A stretch of DNA of 7,784 nt from Actinomycetota bacterium (GTDB taxonomy: Bacteria; Actinomycetota; Acidimicrobiia; Acidimicrobiales; Poriferisodaliceae). The translations under genes and the position numbers were made by a program. The stretch covers positions 1-7,784 of the forward strand of contig PCCJ01000025.1 of NCBI GenBank assembly GCA_002731665.1, written 5' to 3'. Below are positions 1 through 5,388 of this stretch, one piece after another (position 1 is the first letter of the stretch; each line of letters starts with the position of its first letter). Below the pieces are notes generated by a model. It was given only the letters and a program-made list of their open reading frames with translations, searched no databases and was not told the DNA's origin.

Positions 1-138
1 ACTGAGAATCTCCCCGGCCTGTATTTCTTGCTCACGTTCGGTGCGTTCAGTGTCGTCCTCAATGTATGTGAGGGCGTCAACTCCGTTCGCCTCATAGGCG
101 TAGCAGTCGTAGCATACCCAACTTAGATAATTGTTCAT
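1..138 (-). CDS. Hypothetical protein, 3' end beyond window (partial)
   Basis: The open frame starts at ATG 138-136 and stays open for 46 codons to the window edge, so the C-terminus is missing. The visible N-terminus begins MNNYLSWVCYDCYAYEANGV. The CYDC pair of cysteines followed by an acidic, E/Q-rich stretch could be half of a small metal site, but no second pair is seen. The start is set by a ribosome site (AAGGA, 147-143) four bases upstream, in the same context (AGGAAACCATG) as two other genes of this leftward operon. A tRNA-like RNA module lies immediately upstream. I do not recognise the protein. Small early or middle phage proteins of unknown role commonly sit in such operons. Confidence 0.75.
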   Translation of the reverse strand, partial: MNNYLSWVCYDCYAYEANGVDALTYIEDDTERTEREQEIQAGEILS

Positions 139-168
139 GGTTTCCTTACTGATCCACCGGGAGGTGGA
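139..168 (-). promoter_or_regulatory. 5' hairpin plus ribosome site of module 1
   Basis: Read on the minus strand, TCCACC (168-163), loop TCCC and GGTGGA (158-153) form a perfect 6-bp hairpin. After it comes a 14-base segment with AAGGA just before ATG 138. If the upstream tRNA-like element were cut after its discriminator A, this hairpin would lie about four bases from the new mRNA 5' end, where such hairpins are known to protect mRNAs. The structure is seen; the role is inferred. Confidence 0.6.
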
Positions 169-169
169 A

Positions 170-212
170 TCGTGCCGGTGCAAGAATCGAACTTGCTTGA
201 ACCATTACCGGC
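170..212 (-). ncRNA. tRNA-like element, module 1 (acceptor stem + T-arm, no anticodon arm)
   Basis: On the minus strand, GCCGGT (212-207) pairs perfectly with ACCGGC (179-174). Between them lie a 10-base linker AATGGTTCAA (206-197) and a T-arm with stem GCAAG/CTTGC and the canonical 7-base loop TTCGATT (191-185). The element ends in ACGA (173-170), i.e. a discriminator A followed by CGA instead of CCA. The GG in the linker could play the part of tRNA D-loop G18-G19, which contact the T-loop, so a minimal tRNA elbow may be kept with no D-stem or anticodon arm. It starts 7 bases after the stop codon of the upstream gene. A 7-bp hairpin with that stop codon in its loop (229-223 with 218-212) abuts the element. 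Confidence 0.7.
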
Positions 213-219
213 TGCCGCA

Positions 220-414
220 CTAGCGGCAGTAGTGCATATCGTCACTTTCCATGATGACTGCTACTCCACAATCCGGGCATGACGGCACCCGGTGGCCTAG
301 GCCGTAGCCCGGTTCCGGGAACGTCAACTCGCTGTAAAGCTTTCCTTTTAGTTCTTCTTCCGAACTGTTGCGAATTTCGTCACTTGAAAAGACAATCGCT
401 TTTGTAAATTCCAT
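220..414 (-). CDS. Hypothetical 64-aa protein with C-terminal CPDCG zinc-ribbon-like knuckle
   Basis: A complete 64-codon gene starts at ATG 414 behind TTAGGAAACC. The N-terminal half (residues 1-30) is charged and probably helical (SSDEIRNSSEEELKGKL). The C-terminal part has CPDCG at about residues 46-50 and ends in HYCR, a layout like a zinc ribbon (CPxCG, then xYC) that is cut off before a fourth ligand. A histidine next to the last cysteine could complete the site. It might bind nucleic acid or a protein, but no family can be named. It lies second from the left edge in the leftward operon, between tRNA-like modules 2 (upstream) and 1 (downstream). Its reading frame, ribosome site and operon position make it a real gene. 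Confidence 0.8.
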   Translation of the reverse strand: MEFTKAIVFSSDEIRNSSEEELKGKLYSELTFPEPGYGLGHRVPSCPDCGVAVIMESDDMHYCR

Positions 415-444
415 GGTTTCCTAACTGATCCAACTGGTGTTGGA
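415..444 (-). promoter_or_regulatory. 5' hairpin plus ribosome site of module 2
   Basis: On the minus strand TCCAAC (444-439), loop ACCA and GTTGGA (434-429) form a 6-bp hairpin. It differs from the module 1 hairpin by a compensated pair (C-G replaced by A-T), with an unrelated loop. The 14-base segment behind it (TCAGTTAGGAAACC) is nearly identical to that of module 1 and carries the AGGA ribosome site for ATG 414. Confidence 0.6.
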
Positions 445-445
445 A

Positions 446-490
446 TCGTGCCGGGCGACGGAATCGAACCGTCGTGTAACCGTTCCCGGT
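446..490 (-). ncRNA. tRNA-like element, module 2
   Basis: On the minus strand ACCGGG (490-485) pairs with CCCGGC (455-450) over five bases, with an A.C mismatch at the outer end. The linker AACGGTTACA (484-475) again contains GG. The T-arm has a 6-bp stem CGACGG/CCGTCG and loop TTCGATT (468-462). The element ends in ACGA (449-446). It begins 6 bases after the stop codon of the gene upstream, and that stop codon sits in the 7-base loop of a small ACCC/GGGT hairpin (506-503 with 495-492). The stem sequences differ from module 1 but the fold is the same, which argues for selection on structure. Confidence 0.65.
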
Positions 491-496
491 GACCCG

Positions 497-715
497 CTAT
501 GAGGGTAGTTCATTCATCTGTTCTGGCAGATTGTTGAGTGAGGTCTCGCCTACCCAACGCTCGCCGTGGCCGGTAGTGATTAGGCAGTCCACCCGGTCGA
601 ATACTTGCCGAACATCAATAACGTCTACAGGCACTTGAATATCTGTGGCTATACCGTTAGACGGTGGAGCCCACATACGACGGCCTAGATGCTTTTGTAA
701 TGCTGCTATGCTCAT
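497..715 (-). CDS. Hypothetical 72-aa protein
   Basis: A complete gene of 72 codons begins MSIAALQKHLGRRMWAPP from ATG 715, with the ribosome site ATAGGAAACC directly upstream. Residues 1-14 could form a basic amphipathic helix. The middle (VPVDVIDVRQVFDRVDCLIT, about 28-47) is rich in beta-branched residues and looks like beta-strands. The tail is polar. There is no signal peptide, membrane segment or metal motif, and I do not recognise the family. The compact alpha/beta appearance fits a small cytoplasmic phage protein. It lies between tRNA-like modules 3 (upstream) and 2 (downstream), with intergenic gaps of about 80 bases on both sides. Confidence 0.8.
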   Translation of the reverse strand: MSIAALQKHLGRRMWAPPSNGIATDIQVPVDVIDVRQVFDRVDCLITTGHGERWVGETSLNNLPEQMNELPS

Positions 716-745
716 GGTTTCCTATCTGTTTCGGTGTTTCCGAAA
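716..745 (-). promoter_or_regulatory. 5' hairpin plus ribosome site of module 3
   Basis: On the minus strand TTTCGG (745-740), loop AAACA and CCGAAA (734-729) form a perfect 6-bp hairpin whose sequence is unlike those of modules 1 and 2, while its position right after ACGA is the same. A 13-base segment CAGATAGGAAACC with AGGA leads to ATG 715. Confidence 0.6.
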
Positions 746-787
746 TCGTGCTCCGTGCCGGAATCGAACCGGCTAACCATTCAGAGC
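746..787 (-). ncRNA. tRNA-like element, module 3
   Basis: On the minus strand GCTCTG (787-782) pairs with CGGAGC (755-750), with one G.U pair. The linker is AATGGTTA (781-774), close to a real D-loop sequence. The T-arm is GCCGG/CCGGC around loop TTCGATT (768-762), and a single unpaired A (756) separates T-stem from acceptor. The end is ACGA (749-746). It starts 6 bases after the upstream stop codon, as in module 2. No stop-codon hairpin is evident here. Confidence 0.65.
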
Positions 788-793
788 GACTAA

Positions 794-1078
794 CTAGGCC
801 CACACTGCTAACGCTAGGAAATAGTAAGCGTCGTGGTCCCAACCCATACCGCTAATCTTGCCTCCCTTATCGTCAAACATCACGGCCGCTAGCGCCTCCG
901 CTGCTGCCATGTGGTTGTCTTGCGCATTCAGTGCGTAGTCCCAACTAACGACTACTCTTTTAGTGTCGCTATCGCACCATTTATGGGTAGCGGCTACACG
1001 AGCACCCCGGTAATTAGTTGGGCCTAGGAATCTAGTTTTAATTAGGCAGCCTTTTGCGTCTATGTTTAGATATGACAT
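794..1078 (-). CDS. Hypothetical 94-aa protein, first gene of the leftward operon
   Basis: The chosen start is ATG 1078, giving a 94-residue protein beginning MSYLNIDAKGCLIKTRFLGP. The frame stays open further upstream to 1195, but those codons run through tRNA-like module 4 and its hairpin. The purine-rich AGAGAAG before ATG 1078 and the match to the ACCATG context of the other genes favour the shorter form. The protein mixes beta-like stretches (RVVVSWDYAL, about 41-50) with an alanine-rich helix (HMAAAEALAAVMF, about 56-68) and ends in hydrophobic ALAVWA. No catalytic or binding motif is evident. It looks like a small folded cytoplasmic protein. I do not recognise a family. Confidence 0.78.
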   Translation of the reverse strand: MSYLNIDAKGCLIKTRFLGPTNYRGARVAATHKWCDSDTKRVVVSWDYALNAQDNHMAAAEALAAVMFDDKGGKISGMGWDHDAYYFLALAVWA

Positions 1079-1116
1079 GGTTTTTCTTCTCTCATTATGT
1101 GCGAGTGCATCTCGCA
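1079..1116 (-). promoter_or_regulatory. 5' hairpin plus ribosome site of module 4
   Basis: On the minus strand TGCGAG (1116-1111), loop ATGCA and CTCGCA (1105-1100) form a 6-bp hairpin directly after ACGA, as in the other three modules but with unrelated sequence. The following segment is longer (21 bases) and has a GAGAGAAG ribosome site before ATG 1078. Confidence 0.6.
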
Positions 1117-1170
1117 TCGTGAACGGTGGGGACTCGAACCCCGTTGGGCACCGTATAAATGCCACCGTCC
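1117..1170 (-). ncRNA. tRNA-like element, module 4, with an extra arm
   Basis: On the minus strand GGACGGT (1170-1164) pairs with ACCGTTC (1127-1121), one G.U pair included. The T-arm is GGGG/CCCC with loop TTCGAGT (1138-1132). It ends in ACGA (1120-1117) like the others. The linker is longer (21 bases) and can fold as GGCAT/GTGCC with a 7-base loop (1163-1159 with 1151-1147), resembling an anticodon arm, although the base after the would-be anticodon is C, unusual for a tRNA. The stretch TACGGTGCCCAA matches the GG-containing linkers of the other copies. No D-arm fits, so this is not a normal tRNA gene. It may be an intermediate between a tRNA and the shorter modules. Confidence 0.6.
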
Positions 1171-1503
1171 TAACCATGAAAACCAAGATATGCACTTTCC
1201 GTGGGACCGCCTTACCGCTCCGTGGTCGGCGCTTATCTTCGATATAGGTCTAACCTCCCGATGAATCGGTGGCCGCCTACATCACGCAGCCGCACTTCCC
1301 GCTAGGTCTTCCCTCGCCCTATCTGCTCCCCCTTTTAGGAGAGCAGGTCATAAGACCGACCTAACAAGACTCAAGCCGCAAGACTTCGCCCTTAAGCCAC
1401 CGTGACCGCTACCCCTCTCAAGGGCGGCCCGTAGGTGACCACCGGCAGACCCAACCCTATCTGCGGGTTTCGAACTACCGGACCAAGTAGCAAACTACTT
1501 GAT
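1171..1503 (-). ncRNA. Structured leader RNA of the leftward operon, unknown class
   Basis: No gene is seen here on either strand. On the minus strand nested helices can be drawn: CGGTGGC (1402-1396) with GCCACCG (1273-1267), enclosing GTTAGGTC (1365-1358) with GACCTAGC (1308-1301), enclosing a 10-bp hairpin (1346-1337 with 1332-1323, AAAA loop, two G.U pairs that only form on this strand). Further stems are AAGTAG/CTACTT (1500-1485), GCAGA/TCTGC (1464-1445) and CCGCCCT/AGG..GCGG (1427-1406). The strand is G-rich relative to its complement. It lies between a promoter and tRNA-like module 4, so it is the 5' leader or a separate RNA released by processing. It does not match tmRNA, RNase P RNA or group I core motifs that I could recall. 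Confidence 0.5.
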
Positions 1504-1509
1504 GAGTCC

Positions 1510-1537
1510 AGTATAAGGGTATGTAATACAAAAGCAA
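1510..1537 (-). promoter_or_regulatory. Leftward promoter candidate
   Basis: On the minus strand, TATACT (1515-1510) is a good -10 box. TTGCTT (1537-1532), 16 bases upstream, is a poor to fair -35. Transcription would begin near 1503 and read the structured leader and the four leftward genes. Nothing else upstream of the operon looks better, and a position just left of the repeat cluster is sensible for a regulated early promoter. Confidence 0.45.
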
Positions 1538-1586
1538 CAACCAAAAGAAAAAAAACAGGAAATCTTTTTCAAAAACCCAAACAAAA

Positions 1587-1640
1587 CAATCCACAAATTA
1601 CCCACAAGCTGAGGACAACCTAAGGACAAGCTGTGGAAAA
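1587..1640. promoter_or_regulatory. Cluster of three DnaA-box-like sites
   Basis: Compared with TTATCCACA, the sites are CAATCCACA (1587-1595, 7 of 9), TTACCCACA (1598-1606, 8 of 9) and, on the minus strand, TTTTCCACA (1640-1632, 8 of 9). Between them, AGGACAA and ACAAGCTG each occur twice (1604-1633). An A-rich stretch (about 1529-1590) flanks the cluster and could unwind easily. Three near-matches in 54 bases next to direct repeats suggest a DnaA-dependent origin, but short near-matches can arise by chance. Confidence 0.45.
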
Positions 1641-1651
1641 ACCCACCAACA

Positions 1652-1834
1652 CTTAACTACCACTCAGTAACTAAACGAACGTTCAGTAAACCCGTAAGTC
1701 TCGCCACGCACCCAAACTTAACGAACGTTTAGTAGGTTCTGACTTAATGAACGTTTAGTAACCCCACCCACTACTTAACAAACGTTTAGTAAGTACCCCA
1801 ATGCGCAAACACTGGCTTAATGAGCGTTTAGTAA
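1652..1834. repeat. Five 19-bp iteron-like repeats plus one degenerate copy
   Basis: Copies lie at 1671-1689, 1717-1735, 1743-1761, 1774-1792 and 1816-1834, with a weak copy at 1652-1670. The consensus is CTTAAyGAACGTTTAGTAA. Each is an imperfect inverted repeat, because the left part CTTAACG is nearly the reverse complement of CGTTTAGT, as expected for a site bound by a dimer. Start-to-start distances are 19, 46, 26, 31 and 42 bases, so spacing is irregular. The right half is the better conserved part. They could be replication iterons or operators for a repressor/activator of the two flanking promoters. No gene in the window is an obvious partner. Confidence 0.85.
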
Positions 1835-1864
1835 GGGGCCAGGTGCCGCCGCACCCCCCACGTA

Positions 1865-1870
1865 TATACT
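1865..1870 (+). promoter_or_regulatory. Rightward -10 box candidate
   Basis: TATACT lies at 1865-1870 within GTATATACTG. No TTGACA-like -35 is found at the proper distance (1842-1847 reads GGTGCC), so the promoter would need an activator. The last 19-bp repeat is centred about 50 bases upstream of the expected start near 1877, a usual place for activator binding. Confidence 0.35.
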
Positions 1871-1914
1871 GTCTATCGGTGTTTTGGGGAGTTTGGTTCA
1901 GGTGTTTGTTTCGT

Positions 1915-1947
1915 GCTGGGTGTTCGCTGGGTGTTTGCTGGGTGTTT
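1915..1947 (+). repeat. Three tandem 11-bp repeats, possible G-quadruplex
   Basis: GCTGGGTGTTy occurs three times head to tail (1915-1925, 1926-1936, 1937-1947), followed by GGGGG at 1949-1953. The four G-runs are separated by 8, 8 and 6 bases, so a G-quadruplex with long loops is possible on this strand. The repeat sits just past the composition flip, at the start of the presumed rightward RNA. Confidence 0.75.
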
Positions 1948-2395
1948 TGGGGGTGTTGTCATCCATTTTGTTGGGCAGTTTTTGAGCTGGTGGCATTTGC
2001 AGTAGTTCATTGTTGTGGTGGTGTCGTTTCGGACGGTGTTGGTGGGTGGGTGAGTGGAGGTAGCCCCCCAGTGGGGGAGCTTCCTTGTTGCACGGTGTTG
2101 GAGCCGTGGTTTCGTTAGGAGCCAGCAGGGGATTGGTCTGCTGGAAGGCCGGGTGGTGACTGTTCGATTGTTTGTTGTGCTGCCCAGGCTTCCCTTTACC
2201 AGCACTCGATTTCAGTCTTGGGTGATTTGTTGAACGCCTTTGCTTGTGTTTCCACGTAGGCGTTGGGGACTGGCAGCGTCTAACGCTTTACTGGCCCTAC
2301 CGTCGATCTGTTCAGGTCGAAGGTTTCGCACCTCGCAACCCTATTTTCCCCTGGGTTGGGGCCACTCTCTCGTGGTGTCACTGGTTGTGTCAGTT

Positions 2396-2404
2396 ATTAT
2401 AGCA
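2396..2404 (-). promoter_or_regulatory. Leftward extended -10 candidate
   Basis: On the minus strand the bases read TGCTATAAT, an extended -10 (TGn plus a perfect TATAAT). No clear -35 is present, which extended -10 promoters tolerate. It would start an RNA near 2389 running leftward, antisense to the presumed rightward structured RNA. A chance match is possible. Confidence 0.35.
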
Positions 2405-2421
2405 CCCCTTTTTGTGGACAG

Positions 2422-2700
2422 CTAACAGTCCAAGTCTCTTTTAAGTTTTTCCCATACTGTCCATTGTTGTTCTGTCCAGTTGTGGTCGATTGTGTTGTAA
2501 AGCTGGGAGCATTGTGCCCCGTATCCGGTGTTATGTAATAGTACGGTGGTATCTTTTTCTTCTCCTCCGTTAGGCCACCACATTATGATTGCGCTTACGG
2601 CAGCAGCTAAGGCTACTCCGACAGCAGATAAGGCTTTTAAGATTTTTTTTATTGCCTCTGACCAAGCGTCAGCTCGTTCAGCGACTTCCTCTATAGTCAT
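2422..2700 (-). CDS. Small membrane protein, 92 aa, holin-like in layout
   Basis: The gene begins at ATG 2700, with an in-frame stop two codons upstream, so the start is secure. A ribosome site AGGTGG (2718-2713) is 12 bases upstream and a weaker AGGT touches the start. Residues 1-20 form a charged amphipathic helix (EEVAERADAWSEAIKK). Residues about 20-42 are one hydrophobic alanine-rich membrane segment ending in MWWP, followed by a polar tail of some 50 residues with two cysteines, aromatic residues and a charged end. One transmembrane helix with a charged tail is compatible with a holin, spanin-type or virion membrane protein, but no family is recognised. It is the only leftward gene between two gene-free or rightward regions, placed back-to-back with the late operon (44 bases apart). 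Confidence 0.75.
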   Translation of the reverse strand: MTIEEVAERADAWSEAIKKILKALSAVGVALAAAVSAIIMWWPNGGEEKDTTVLLHNTGYGAQCSQLYNTIDHNWTEQQWTVWEKLKRDLDC

Positions 2701-2712
2701 TACCTAATAATA

Positions 2713-2718
2713 CCACCT
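2713..2718 (-). promoter_or_regulatory. Ribosome site of the membrane protein gene
   Basis: AGGTGG on the minus strand is a strong Shine-Dalgarno match but lies 12 bases before ATG 2700, farther than usual. A weaker AGGT (2705-2702) is too close. With an in-frame TAG just upstream of ATG, no alternative start brings the site nearer. Confidence 0.4.
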
Positions 2719-2744
2719 TTGTTTTTCTGCTATCTTTTTGAGTC

Positions 2745-2900
2745 ATGGCTAAACGTGGTTTGTATTCGAATATTCATGCGAAACGTAAACGCATTAAAGC
2801 GGGTAGTGGCGAGGCAATGCGTAAACCTGGATCTAAGGGTGCGCCTACAAACAAAGCGTTTAAGCAGTCAGCTAAAACTGCGAAGAAACGGAAACGGTAA
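2745..2900 (+). CDS. Very basic 51-aa phage protein
   Basis: This short gene starts MAKRGLYSNIHAKRKRIKAG at ATG 2745 and ends KKRKR. About one third of its residues are K or R, and glycine/serine links (GSGEAMRKPGSKGAPT) separate the basic blocks. I recall closely similar short proteins in many uncultured marine phages, usually near terminase and portal genes; their role is unknown. The composition suggests binding to DNA, RNA or an acidic partner, perhaps during packaging. It is the first gene of the rightward operon. The ribosome site is weak (GAG, 2740-2742), and its stop overlaps the next start in a TAATG junction. Confidence 0.85.
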   Translation: MAKRGLYSNIHAKRKRIKAGSGEAMRKPGSKGAPTNKAFKQSAKTAKKRKR

Positions 2901-3453: not shown

Positions 3454-5388
3454 ATGCCATCAGGCAAAGCTACGACAATAGAAAAATGGGCCGACTACCT
3501 GGCGATGCGCCGACAAGGGATTTCTTTATACGCAGCATCAAAACATTGCGGGTTGTCTTATCACGCTTGCCGGGACGCAGAAAGTGGAAAGGCCCCACGT
3601 AACTATCTTGCAGCGGAAGAAGCATTAGGGAAAACGATTCAACCAGAAGTTCCTCTCTATGATGTTCTTTCTCCTGAAGCTCAGGATGCTTACGACAATA
3701 TCGAAGTTTTTGCTAAAAGATATTTTGGGATTATTCTTCAGCCTTGGCAAATTGAGGCTACTGAACGCATCATGGGTCTCCTCAACACAGACTTTGAAGA
3801 GTACGCAGTAATTAATGCCCCACCAGGGTCAGGTAAGTCAACTTTCTTTGCTAAGGTATTGCCTGCATGGGCAACCGTGCGTAACCGAGCCATCCGTGGG
3901 ATGATCGGTTCATCTACACAACGACTGGCTGAATGGTATTGCCGCAGGCTGCGTGCTGAGTTAGATCGAGCGCATCCCGTAAAAGCTGAGCTGAACGATG
4001 TTCGACTCGGTTTGGCGGTTGACGCTGAAGCTACGTTGCAAGATGACTTTGGGATGTTCAAACCCGACTCTTCAGAAATTTGGCGAGCCGAAGCATTCAC
4101 AGTGCTACAACAAGATGATGCTCCTTTATCTCAGAAGGAGCCAACATGGTCAGCTTTCGGAATGGACTCCGGGTTTCTCGGTGGTCGTTTCGATTTGGTG
4201 ATTTGGGACGACGTTTACGATCCTCGCAAGATGCGGTCGTCGGAAGCCCGTGAAGATATGCGTCGCTGGTGGGACGAAGTAGCTGAAACTCGGTTAGAGC
4301 CGGGTGGGCTCTTAATCTTACAAGGGCAACGCATGTCCGCAGATGACATCTACCGGTATGCACTGGACAAAGTAGCTCCACCCGACGAAATAGAGTTAGA
4401 GGAATTTGATCCAGAAGATGCACCAGAAGATTGGCGTAAATATCATCACATCAGCTATAAAGCGCACTACGAAAAACTTTGTACAGGCGATCACAAGGCT
4501 CCAGGCACACCCTGGCCCGAAGGGTGTTTACTTTACCCTCGAAGATTACCCTGGCGAAAGCTGCGACACATTAAAGCGCAAACTCCAGACAGATTTGAGG
4601 TCTTGTATCAGCAATCGGACGTAAACCCCGCAGCGGTTTTAGTTGACCCTTTATGGGTAAGTGGCGGTCTTGGTAAAGACGGCGTTGATTATGTGGGTTG
4701 TTGGGACAACGACCGTGACCTTTGGGAAATACCTGCGGGTGTTTCTGGTGACTTGTTTGTTGTAGCAACTGCTGACCCTTCGCCGTCTAAATTCTGGGCG
4801 TTACAATGCTGGGCATACAACCCTGAAACACAGTTTAGGTATTTGTTAGAATCGTATCGTCGGAAGATGGATGCGCCGTCGTTCCTTGATTGGAATCATT
4901 CAGAACAAACGTTTACTGGTGTTGCCGAAGATTGGTGGCAAATTACTAACAACATGGGTCGTCCTTTAACACATTGGATTATTGAAGCAAATGCCGCTCA
5001 AAAATTTATTCTCCAATACGATCATTTCAAACGTTGGGCAGCGATGCGTGGCGTGGAGTTGGTGCCTCATTACACGCACTCAAGAAACAAAGGCGACCCC
5101 AAGTATGGGGTGCAAATGCTCGCTCCGTTATGGCGCGTTGGCCGAGTGCGTTTGCCAGGTAAACAACGGACAGAAGCGCGCCCGCATTCGCTTCTTTTAG
5201 TAAATGAAGTAACACGCTGGAACCCGGAAGGCACGGGTGCCCGCACAGACGACTGTGTTATGGCACAATGGTTTATGGAACACAACCTTGAAAAGCTATA
5301 TGTTTCTCCCTCACAAGGGGTCAAACAGTGGCGACCGACATGGGTTTCAGGGCAAGATAGTGAGTACGCAGCATCCGGTAGGTTTTAA
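3454..5388 (+). CDS. terL: Phage terminase large subunit (packaging ATPase-nuclease)
   Basis: This 644-residue protein is the DNA-packaging motor and genome-cutting nuclease, acting at the portal of the empty head. Visible motifs are Walker A NAPPGSGKST (121-130), Walker B FDLVIWDD (246-253), a coupling motif GQRMSADDIY (291-300), and three acidic clusters expected for the RNase H-like nuclease: D441 (ATADPSPS), E511 (WIIEANAAQ) and D599/D600 (ARTDDCVMA). Length is at the upper end of the usual range because residues about 1-60 form an extra domain with a helix-turn-helix look (GISLYAASKHCGLSYHACRD). No separate small terminase is seen nearby, so this part might supply DNA recognition. The start ATG 3454 follows AAGGGGA at good spacing, and the stop is immediately followed by the portal start. 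Confidence 0.93.
   Translation: MPSGKATTIEKWADYLAMRRQGISLYAASKHCGLSYHACRDAESGKAPRNYLAAEEALGKTIQPEVPLYDVLSPEAQDAYDNIEVFAKRYFGIILQPWQIEATERIMGLLNTDFEEYAVINAPPGSGKSTFFAKVLPAWATVRNRAIRGMIGSSTQRLAEWYCRRLRAELDRAHPVKAELNDVRLGLAVDAEATLQDDFGMFKPDSSEIWRAEAFTVLQQDDAPLSQKEPTWSAFGMDSGFLGGRFDLVIWDDVYDPRKMRSSEAREDMRRWWDEVAETRLEPGGLLILQGQRMSADDIYRYALDKVAPPDEIELEEFDPEDAPEDWRKYHHISYKAHYEKLCTGDHKAPGTPWPEGCLLYPRRLPWRKLRHIKAQTPDRFEVLYQQSDVNPAAVLVDPLWVSGGLGKDGVDYVGCWDNDRDLWEIPAGVSGDLFVVATADPSPSKFWALQCWAYNPETQFRYLLESYRRKMDAPSFLDWNHSEQTFTGVAEDWWQITNNMGRPLTHWIIEANAAQKFILQYDHFKRWAAMRGVELVPHYTHSRNKGDPKYGVQMLAPLWRVGRVRLPGKQRTEARPHSLLLVNEVTRWNPEGTGARTDDCVMAQWFMEHNLEKLYVSPSQGVKQWRPTWVSGQDSEYAASGRF

What the first reader, a model, noticed from the sequence alone, without database searches (positions are those of the whole stretch)
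139..1170. Four tRNA-like minihelix modules separate the genes of one phage operon ('tRNA punctuation')
Each of the four leftward genes is preceded by acceptor-like stem, GG-containing linker, T-arm with TTCGA loop, ACGA, hairpin, ribosome site and ATG. For the three internal copies the element begins 6-7 bases after the upstream stop and gaps are 78-82 bases. Acceptor, T-stem and hairpin sequences differ between copies while pairing is kept, so structure is selected, not just a recent duplication. Established: RNase P accepts acceptor/T-arm minihelices, and mitochondria use tRNAs to cut polycistronic RNA. Inference: host RNase P and RNase Z split this message into monocistronic mRNAs. I know of no described phage operon with anticodon-less elements repeated in this way.
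Basis: partly seen in the sequence, partly recalled or inferred. Interest (0 to 1): 0.95.

Follow-up and report, generated by a model that had tools for sequence, protein, structure and literature searches.

The report
tRNA mimics punctuating phage operons
Small RNA structures that copy the acceptor and T-arm half of a transfer RNA, with no anticodon, lie in front of each of four genes in this phage operon and recur between genes in dozens of other phage sequences, where they likely act as cutting signals that let the host's tRNA-processing enzymes split one long message into single-gene messages.

Summary
Four minus-strand elements (acceptor stem, D-loop-like AAYGGTT linker in copies 1-3, T-arm with TTCGA loop, ACGA, hairpin, ribosome site) precede the four leftward genes. 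A stem-blind pattern scan of IMG/VR gave 64 distinct matches; 53 form all five T-stem pairs (dealt-arm control 7.6%). A covariance model finds up to ten full-length copies per record, including Mycobacterium phages Cuke, Fowlmouth, Predator and Cosmo. Pairs covary (241 two-sided changes against 71 shuffled) and the stacked helix is 11-12 bp in 93 of 95. In three annotated phages 25 of 33 long gaps of the arrays carry one (shuffles 0.1%), 0 of 10 elsewhere. Tested Rfam and ARAGORN scans call none; bacterial chromosomes almost lack them. Wildcat genes 143-171 have published, unexplained 80-100 bp gaps with RNA-seq dips; its relative Cosmo carries the elements in 6 of 12 such gaps. True tRNA genes of these phages share the C74-[G/T]75 boundary. 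I infer tRNA punctuation: host RNase P and/or RNase Z likely cut here, and the hairpin likely protects the new 5' end. No cleavage was tested. Against: U-1 is missing, one window copy folds better another way, and most window kin lack the elements.

The parts
170..212 (-). Copy 1 core: acceptor 212-207/179-174, D-loop-like linker AATGGTTCAA 206-197, T-stem 196-192/184-180, T-loop TTCGATT 191-185, discriminator A 173, CGA 172-170
   Evidence: covariance model hit 168-214, E 3.3e-9 (this copy was in the training rows)
152..169 (-). Hairpin directly after copy 1
446..489 (-). Copy 2 core: acceptor CCGGG/CCCGG, linker AACGGTTACA, T-stem CGACGG/CCGTCG, loop TTCGATT, ACGA 449-446
   Evidence: model hit 444-492, E 4.4e-12 (training row); alternative 5' partner in the predicted fold
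428..445 (-). Hairpin directly after copy 2
746..787 (-). Copy 3 core: acceptor GCTCTG/CGGAGC with one bulged A, linker AATGGTTA, T-stem GCCGG/CCGGC, loop TTCGATT, ACGA 749-746
   Evidence: model hit 744-789, E 6.2e-9 (training row)
729..745 (-). Hairpin directly after copy 3
1117..1170 (-). Copy 4 core, before the first gene: acceptor GGACGGT/ACCGTTC, extra arm GGCATTTATACGGTGCC, T-stem GGGG/CCCC, loop TTCGAGT, ACGA 1120-1117
   Evidence: not found by the model at E 0.05
1100..1116 (-). Hairpin directly after copy 4
1..138 (-). Leftward gene 4 of the operon (runs off the window), no Pfam or PHROG match
220..414 (-). Leftward gene 3, 64 aa, no Pfam or PHROG match
497..715 (-). Leftward gene 2, 72 aa, no Pfam or PHROG match
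794..1078 (-). Leftward gene 1, 94 aa, PHROG 3199 (unknown function), E 2.5e-11
1196..1530 (-). Strongly structured leader upstream of copy 4, probably the 5' part of the same transcript (promoter not identified)
   Evidence: fold z -3.34, 0 of 100 shuffles as good

Best explanation
The elements are anticodon-less tRNA mimics (acceptor stem stacked on a T-arm, with D-loop-like bases) that likely punctuate a polycistronic phage transcript: the host's tRNA-processing enzymes, RNase P before the acceptor and/or RNase Z after the discriminator A, are predicted to cut there and release single-gene mRNAs. Shown by calls: the structure, its covariation, its 11-12 bp helix length, its usual place just after a stop codon and before a ribosome site, and its recurrence in many phages. 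Inferred: that the genes are co-transcribed, that the RNA is cut, by which enzyme, and that the hairpin, which starts most often 3-4 nt after the discriminator, becomes a protective 5' end of the downstream mRNA. A further inference is that this insulates each small gene from its neighbours, so that genes can be exchanged at these boundaries.
For: Stem-blind scan: 53 of 64 distinct matches form 5 of 5 T-stem pairs (arms dealt among rows: 7.6%) and 56 of 64 at least 5 of 6 acceptor pairs at the best register. On 52 rows: 94.6% of cells paired against 52.9% shuffled and 36-53% slid; 241 two-sided changes against 71; covariation score 1.017 against 0.206 (rows had passed a pairing filter). Helix length 11 in 72, 12 in 21, 13 in 2 of 95, up to 17 allowed. 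A linker-free 12-bp minihelix in Predator. Placement: stop just before and start plus ribosome site after in 69 of 97 distinct copies, random same-strand positions 3.75%. Hairpin within 8 nt after the discriminator in 70 of 97, letter shuffles 10.4%. Gaps of 60-260 nt in the arrays of Cuke, Predator and Cosmo: 12 of 13, 7 of 8 and 6 of 12 carry it (25 of 33), shuffles 0.1%; in the rest of the fetched stretches 0 of 10 (25 of 43 in all). Full-length model hits in those genomes lie in one gene block each. True tRNA genes of Cosmo and Cuke have C74 in 22 of 26 and G or T at 75 in 20 of 26; the elements have C74 in 88 and G/T75 in 88 of 95. Wildcat genes 143-171: 80-100 bp gaps, shark-tooth RNA-seq with low points at the gaps, no promoter, terminator or single common motif identified (PMC7474061, section 9 read). 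E. coli RNase P RNA cleaves acceptor/T-stem/T-loop model hairpins, and RNase P processes phage C4 RNA and mRNAs (PMC11143913, passages; PMC10465520, passages).
Against: No RNA end or cleavage data were available. The elements have T at -1 in 2 of 95, against 22 of 26 true tRNAs of the same phages (my count), so RNase P may not treat them alike. CCA, whose RCC part pairs with RNase P RNA, is absent (C at 75 in 2 of 95). The copy 2 fold disfavours the acceptor pairing. Eight of 33 array gaps lack the descriptor, six of them in Cosmo, the phage closest to Wildcat. One of the two Cosmo model hits (L109 11974-12019) overlaps the annotated start of gene 144, although an ATG follows 29 nt after it. 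27 of 97 copies lack a nearby hairpin and 28 of 97 miss at least one placement criterion. 28 of 30 related records lack a full-length match (many are fragments), so the elements are not fixed in this lineage. The number of pairs with two-sided changes (10 of 11) does not exceed shuffles (9.9). The RNA-seq dips could come from structure or library bias.
Confidence: 0.6

Rival explanations
1. The element is not cut out but acts in place as an RNA cap: a tRNA-like fold that blocks exonucleases at the 3' end of the upstream gene, or isolates translation of neighbouring genes, like the tRNA-like 3' ends of plant viruses.
For: The fold sits mostly 5-10 nt after stop codons; the base before the RNase P site is not tRNA-like (T at -1 in 2 of 95).
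Against: The hairpin starting most often 3-4 nt after the discriminator and the tRNA-gene-like C74-[G/T]75 boundary are better explained by a 3' cut. A cap needs no T-loop or D-loop bases.
Confidence: 0.2
2. Each gap holds a promoter or terminator, and the tRNA-like part serves transcription control.
For: Shark-tooth RNA-seq in Wildcat could reflect separate transcripts, as its authors suggest (PMC7474061).
Against: No terminator-like site on the minus strand of window 1-2800, and one weak promoter-like site (1123-1094) against a shuffle mean of 2.2 for both strands (sigma-70 consensus only). The Wildcat authors also found neither. Pairs covary as RNA.
Confidence: 0.06
3. Recombination sites: the elements mainly serve as homology or integrase targets for shuffling gene cassettes, like integron attC sites.
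For: Of 89 element pairs in different contigs that share a flanking homologue, 61 share only one side.
Against: Acceptor and T-stem letters differ between copies while pairing is kept, which is poor for homologous recombination; T-loop and linker bases are conserved though unpaired; fixed orientation to transcription.
Confidence: 0.06
4. Trans-acting decoys: released or nascent minihelices titrate host tRNA enzymes or anticodon nucleases.
For: Many copies per genome, and in Wildcat the corresponding region is the most highly expressed early one.
Against: Does not explain placement at gene boundaries or the downstream hairpin.
Confidence: 0.05
5. Decayed tRNA genes or chance hairpins.
For: Single copies fold only modestly better than shuffles.
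Against: Stem-blind pairing count, covariation and helix-length limit over many loci.
Confidence: 0.01

Closest known systems
tRNA punctuation of animal mitochondrial transcripts
   Same: tRNA-shaped units lie between genes of one transcript; cutting at them would release mRNAs
   Different: There the units are working tRNAs; here there is no anticodon arm, the carrier is a DNA phage, the downstream gene has its own ribosome site and usually a 5' hairpin, and cutting is not shown
RNase P model hairpin substrates (acceptor stem, T-stem and T-loop, e.g. pATSer)
   Same: Same minimal anatomy; Predator even has a linker-free 12-bp minihelix
   Different: Synthetic molecules with RCCA; the natural elements mostly have ACGA and add D-loop-like bases
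RNase P processing of phage P1/P7 C4 antisense RNA and of some E. coli operon mRNAs
   Same: Phage or operon RNA cut by the host tRNA enzyme (named or cited in PMC11143913, passages)
   Different: As far as I recall, single sites; not a repeated family at gene boundaries
tmRNA (RF00023) tRNA-like domain
   Same: Acceptor and T-arm; partial hits of 11-13 bits on three window T-arms
   Different: No tag reading frame, no full model match; gathering score 47
Plant virus 3' tRNA-like structures and the MALAT1-derived mascRNA (recalled)
   Same: tRNA mimicry used as an RNA-end or processing signal
   Different: Single, terminal or nuclear; not repeated in a bacterial virus operon
Wildcat Motif 1 (PMC7474061)
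   Same: 60-bp motif in four Wildcat gaps; the Cosmo gaps at L109 17173, 17644, 18071 and 19531 carry the 12-bp helix with T-loop; correspondence inferred from gene order only
   Different: In the section read the authors describe a shared sequence, with no tRNA likeness or function

Membership tests
tRNA gene (RF00005) | Acceptor stem stacked on T-arm with 7-nt T-loop | tested here: met
tRNA gene (RF00005) | Anticodon arm; detection by tRNA models | tested here: not met
   ARAGORN 0 in window and no element called in the loci scanned; Rfam at gathering finds true tRNAs in L107 and L109 but no element in L107, L108, L109, L070, L053; 0 matches at E 0.5 in the Cuke array
tRNA gene (RF00005) | 3' CCA or tRNA-gene-like 3' boundary | tested here: inconclusive
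   CCA absent, but C74-[G/T]75 is shared with most true tRNA genes of Cosmo and Cuke
tmRNA (RF00023) | Full tRNA-like plus mRNA-like domains above gathering score | tested here: not met
   only 13, 12.3 and 10.7 bits against 47
tRNA punctuation | Units sit at gene boundaries | tested here: met
   69 of 97 against 3.75% at random; co-transcription inferred
tRNA punctuation | Units are functional tRNAs | tested here: not met
   no anticodon arm
tRNA punctuation | RNA is cut by RNase P and RNase Z | not testable with these tools
   needs RNA end mapping or in vitro cleavage
RNase P minihelix substrate | About 12-bp stacked acceptor/T-stem with T-loop | tested here: met
   11-12 bp in 93 of 95
RNase P minihelix substrate | 3' RCCA and favoured U at -1 (the U preference partly recalled) | tested here: not met
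   A73 in 84 and C74 in 88 of 95, but C75 in 2 and T at -1 in 2 of 95
RNase Z substrate | Acceptor/T-arm, discriminator, no CCA after it (rule recalled) | tested here: met
   cleavage not testable here
Intrinsic terminator | G+C-rich hairpin followed by a T run | tested here: not met
   none on the minus strand of window 1-2800
Integron attC | RYYYAAC and GTTRRRY ends and integron integrase | not tested
   considered from memory only

The most novel reading that the evidence does not exclude
A previously undescribed RNA family: dedicated, non-coding tRNA-elbow minihelices that hijack the host's essential tRNA maturation enzymes to cut phage early transcripts into autonomous one-gene messages, making every gene a self-contained, exchangeable RNA cassette. 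It would be tRNA punctuation invented again by viruses of bacteria, without tRNAs.
Probability: 0.5. Interest if true: 0.96.

Novelty: new variant of a known kind. Interest (0 to 1): 0.92.

Why it matters
If true, phages use the host's indispensable tRNA enzymes as mRNA processors, a mode known from mitochondria but, in my searches, not described for phages. It offers a direct, testable answer to a published puzzle: why genes of the highly expressed, toxic-gene-rich block of mycobacteriophage Wildcat are separated by 80-100 bp gaps and show RNA-seq low points without identified promoters or terminators (PMC7474061). It could explain how mosaic arrays of small phage genes can be shuffled while each keeps its own message, it gives a structure-based marker for such arrays in unannotated phage DNA, and it might serve as a compact RNA part for separating genes in synthetic operons.

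Tried and rejected
Terminators and promoters as the reason for the gaps: no support. tRNA or tmRNA genes: rejected. Chance hairpins: rejected by the stem-blind scan. Single-copy folding energies: not significant, so not used as proof. Window 1-2800 against named phages: nothing in the operon. Operon proteins 1-4 against the 52 terminase relatives: no match at E 0.01; Pfam none, PHROGs one unknown family. L096 against named phages: no match. The 36-letter fixed-spacing pattern over 394 genomes found nothing, but it also misses the known Glycomyces copy, so it is uninformative. The 396-genome model search scored only 15 candidates per genome, a weak negative; the stronger one is the scan of genome contigs, 4 stretches, all Glycomyces, though it asked only for the AACGGTT form. 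Literature: ten searches of open-access PMC; several gave more papers than were listed. No listed title or abstract start describes such elements. Of papers I saw: PMC7474061 passages and section 9 in full; PMC3029335, PMC11143913, PMC10465520, PMC5723415 and PMC4633059 passages only; the rest listings only.

Biases and dropped rows. Searches asked for fixed letters (AAYGGTT or TGGTT, TTCGATT, CACG or ACGA), so conservation of those letters is partly built in. In one search seven of the 52 relatives had descriptor hits; five without the GGTT linker (L003, L014, L018, L038, L042) were judged chance, and the model confirmed only L027 and L047. The rows of A1 had passed a pairing filter; of 56 thinned rows four were dropped (L109:5563, a true tRNA; L081:6696; L081:11266; L093:1202). 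One search used 116 rows: of the 135 matches, 21 were left out (14 repeats of Cuke, Predator and Cosmo-like copies in L058, L068 and L087; one cut off at a contig end; six weak ones, E 0.005-0.026), and two were added. The four Glycomyces rows were then dropped, leaving 112, 97 distinct, which include the model's training rows; 2 of 97 could not be resolved. In one search I gave only the array blocks, chosen; one search repeats the count on all same-strand gene gaps of 60-260 nt without annotated tRNA in the three stretches: 25 of 43. The descriptor there asks for at least 11 bp, so only the upper limit of 12 is informative. The hairpin control is a letter shuffle, not a dinucleotide shuffle.
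Full report
WHAT IS IN THE WINDOW. The window encodes a large terminase (3454-5388, PHROG 38, E 4e-49) and, to its left, a leftward set of four small genes (138-1, 414-220, 715-497, 1078-794). Before each leftward gene lies one element (cores 170-212, 446-489, 746-787, 1117-1170). Reading the minus strand: acceptor 5' strand, a linker such as AATGGTTCAA, a T-stem, the loop TTCGATT (TTCGAGT in copy 4), the T-stem and acceptor 3' strands, ACGA, a hairpin, a ribosome site, ATG. The element begins 6-7 nt after the upstream stop in the three internal copies. The four hairpins have different letters. ARAGORN finds no tRNA, and Rfam gives only weak T-arm pieces of tmRNA (13, 12.3, 10.7 bits against 47). 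Each copy alone folds only modestly better than shuffles (z -1.3 to -1.6), and the predicted fold of copy 2 gives the acceptor 3' strand another partner, so the case cannot rest on this window.

RELATIVES, FOUND WITHOUT ASKING FOR STEMS. Among 52 terminase relatives in IMG/VR, the element was found in two (L027, L047), each time between two leftward genes (five other descriptor hits without the GGTT linker were judged chance). I then scanned IMG/VR with AACGGTT or AATGGTT, 6-9 free letters, TTCGATT, 10-11 free letters, CACG (24 and 33 stretches). The pattern does not ask for pairing. Of 64 distinct matches in the 106 loci then held and the window, 53 form all five T-stem pairs (arms dealt among rows: 7.6%), and 56 form at least five of six acceptor pairs at the best register. 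Of the 11 without a full T-stem, 7 have at most three T-stem and at most four acceptor pairs, as chance hits would.

COVARIATION. On 52 thinned rows (A1) the two helices have 94.6% of cells paired, against 52.9% with dealt partners and 36-53% with slid partners; 241 cells have changes on both sides against 71, and the covariation score is 1.017 against 0.206. The bare number of pairs with two-sided changes, 10 of 11, does not exceed shuffles (9.9). RNAalifold proposed the same 11 pairs unasked. These rows had passed a pairing filter, so the unfiltered count is the cleaner test. Longest stacked helix per copy: 11 bp in 72, 12 in 21, 13 in 2 of 95 (up to 17 was allowed). A tRNA has 7+5 = 12. One gap of phage Predator holds a linker-free 12-bp stem with a TTCGACT loop followed by GCGA.

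SPREAD. A covariance model (R1) found 135 matches at E 0.05 in 48 sources, some of them repeats of the same phage, and only two at E 0.5 in 759 kb of terminase relatives. It matched none of the 24 annotated tRNA genes of Cosmo in L109. In whole records, chosen because they had a hit, 12 of 34 have five or more matches at E 0.01, a few of them weak and partial. Cuke has ten full-length copies between 30.0 and 37.4 kb of its 68.9 kb plus a weak partial match at 38.0 kb; Predator has six between 36.8 and 39.3 kb of 70.1 kb; Cosmo has two near 68-71 kb of 78.2 kb, one of which overlaps the annotated start of gene 144. L058 and L068 are identical to Cuke and Predator over the stretches compared and L094 to Fowlmouth; L087 is near-identical to the Wildcat-group phages MaryV, Cosmo, EniyanLRS and Azrael100. 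Of 30 records of window kin, two have a full-length match and one a weak partial match. In genome contigs of 84,980 species the AACGGTT form of the pattern occurs in four stretches, all Glycomyces, beside a gene that looks like an FtsK/Tra-type transfer protein in the one I read (L113; family recalled). The model found one of 396 Actinomycetota genomes, the Glycomyces used as centre (only 15 candidates scored per genome). So the element belongs mainly to phages and perhaps to other mobile elements.

PLACE. Of 97 distinct phage copies, 80 begin -8 to +17 nt from the stop of an ORF of at least 40 codons, 80 have a start codon with a ribosome site 15-62 nt after, and 69 have both; random same-strand positions give 14.6%, 24.5% and 3.75%. 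Among gaps of 60-260 nt in the array blocks, 12 of 13 in Cuke, 7 of 8 in Predator and 6 of 12 in Cosmo hold a helix of at least 11 bp with a T-loop (25 of 33); dinucleotide shuffles 0.1%. I chose those blocks after seeing the gaps; over all same-strand gene gaps of that size in the fetched stretches it is 25 of 43, 0 of 10 outside the blocks. The gaps without it include two Cosmo gaps with a plain hairpin and loop GGAACTAGGTCAAA, and two with an acceptor-like stem but no T-arm. Five Cosmo gaps have an extra arm before the T-arm, the plan of window copy 4. One Cuke gap (L107 6528-6724) has a tmRNA-like long insertion and ends ACCA. None of the elements is annotated in the stretches of the three records shown.

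MECHANISM. A hairpin of at least 5 bp starts within 8 nt of the discriminator in 70 of 97 copies (letter shuffles 10.4%), in 42 of the 70 at 3-4 nt. If RNase Z cut after the discriminator, the downstream mRNA would begin with CGA and a hairpin; hairpins close to a 5' end are known to stabilise bacterial mRNA (recalled). The letters after the stem, A-C-G-A (84, 88, 80 and 72 of 95; partly built in by the search pattern), resemble the 3' boundary of the true tRNA genes of Cosmo and Cuke: C74 in 22 of 26, G or T at 75 in 20 of 26. That suggests shared 3' processing. CCA, which in known bacteria blocks RNase Z (recalled), is avoided. For RNase P, the bacterial enzyme's RNA cleaves hairpins made only of acceptor stem, T-stem and T-loop (PMC11143913, passages; PMC10465520, passages), and the same review lists phage C4 RNA and mRNAs as substrates. 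Against full likeness, T at -1 is found in 2 of 95 elements but in 22 of 26 true tRNAs (counted). I therefore think a cut at the 3' side is more likely than one at the 5' side.

INDEPENDENT EVIDENCE IN PRINT. [quoted passage not shown] Two partial motifs were noted. The Cosmo gaps at L109 17173, 17644, 18071 and 19531 fit the four intervals of Motif 1 by gene order if Cosmo numbers run one ahead (inferred, not checked on sequence).

MOSAIC BOUNDARIES. Among pairs of elements in different contigs with a homologous neighbour, 28 share both flanking genes, 35 only the upstream and 26 only the downstream gene (near-duplicate contigs inflate these counts). The elements thus often lie at boundaries where gene content changes, as expected if each gene carries its own message signal.

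VERDICT. The element family is real and, in my ten literature searches of open-access PMC, undescribed. Its way of working is inferred: tRNA-like processing signals that punctuate phage operons, confidence 0.6. I rate it a new variant of a known kind, since tRNA punctuation exists in mitochondria; as an RNA family it belongs to none that I could test.

Noticed in passing
window 1196-1530 (-): Noncoding leader upstream of copy 4 folds far better than shuffles (z -3.34); no Rfam match.
   Followed up: partly
window 1667-1834: Five copies of a 23-nt repeat around AACGAACGTTYAGTAA between the leftward genes and the rightward noncoding stretch; looks like operator or iteron sites.
   Followed up: no
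window 1840-2400 (+): G/T-rich noncoding stretch; its first ~70 nt match many relatives and later parts match a few, but folding is not unusual (z -0.57).
   Followed up: partly
window 2422-2700 (-): 92-aa ORF of unknown function with 31 matches in the relatives, in both orientations relative to the terminase.
   Followed up: no
L107 6528-6724 (Cuke): A gap element with tmRNA-like topology: acceptor, ATGGTTT, long paired insertion, T-arm, 3' ACCA.
   Followed up: no
L108 8397-8537 (Predator): Perfect 12-bp minihelix with T-loop TTCGACT and no linker, followed by GCGA.
   Followed up: no
L109 16202-16293 and 16833-16920 (Cosmo): Two gaps carry instead a plain hairpin with loop GGAACTAGGTCAAA followed by a second hairpin: perhaps another kind of gene separator.
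   Followed up: no
L109 11974-12019 (Cosmo): A model hit overlaps the annotated start of gene 144; an ATG 29 nt after the element may be the true start.
   Followed up: no
L110-L113 (Glycomyces chromosomes): One strong element each, in L113 after a gene that looks like a mobile-element transfer ATPase; weak further model hits in L111, L112 and L113.
   Followed up: partly
L070, L084, L085, L089, L091, L096, L103: Related phage contigs in which homologous genes have different neighbours across similar elements.
   Followed up: partly
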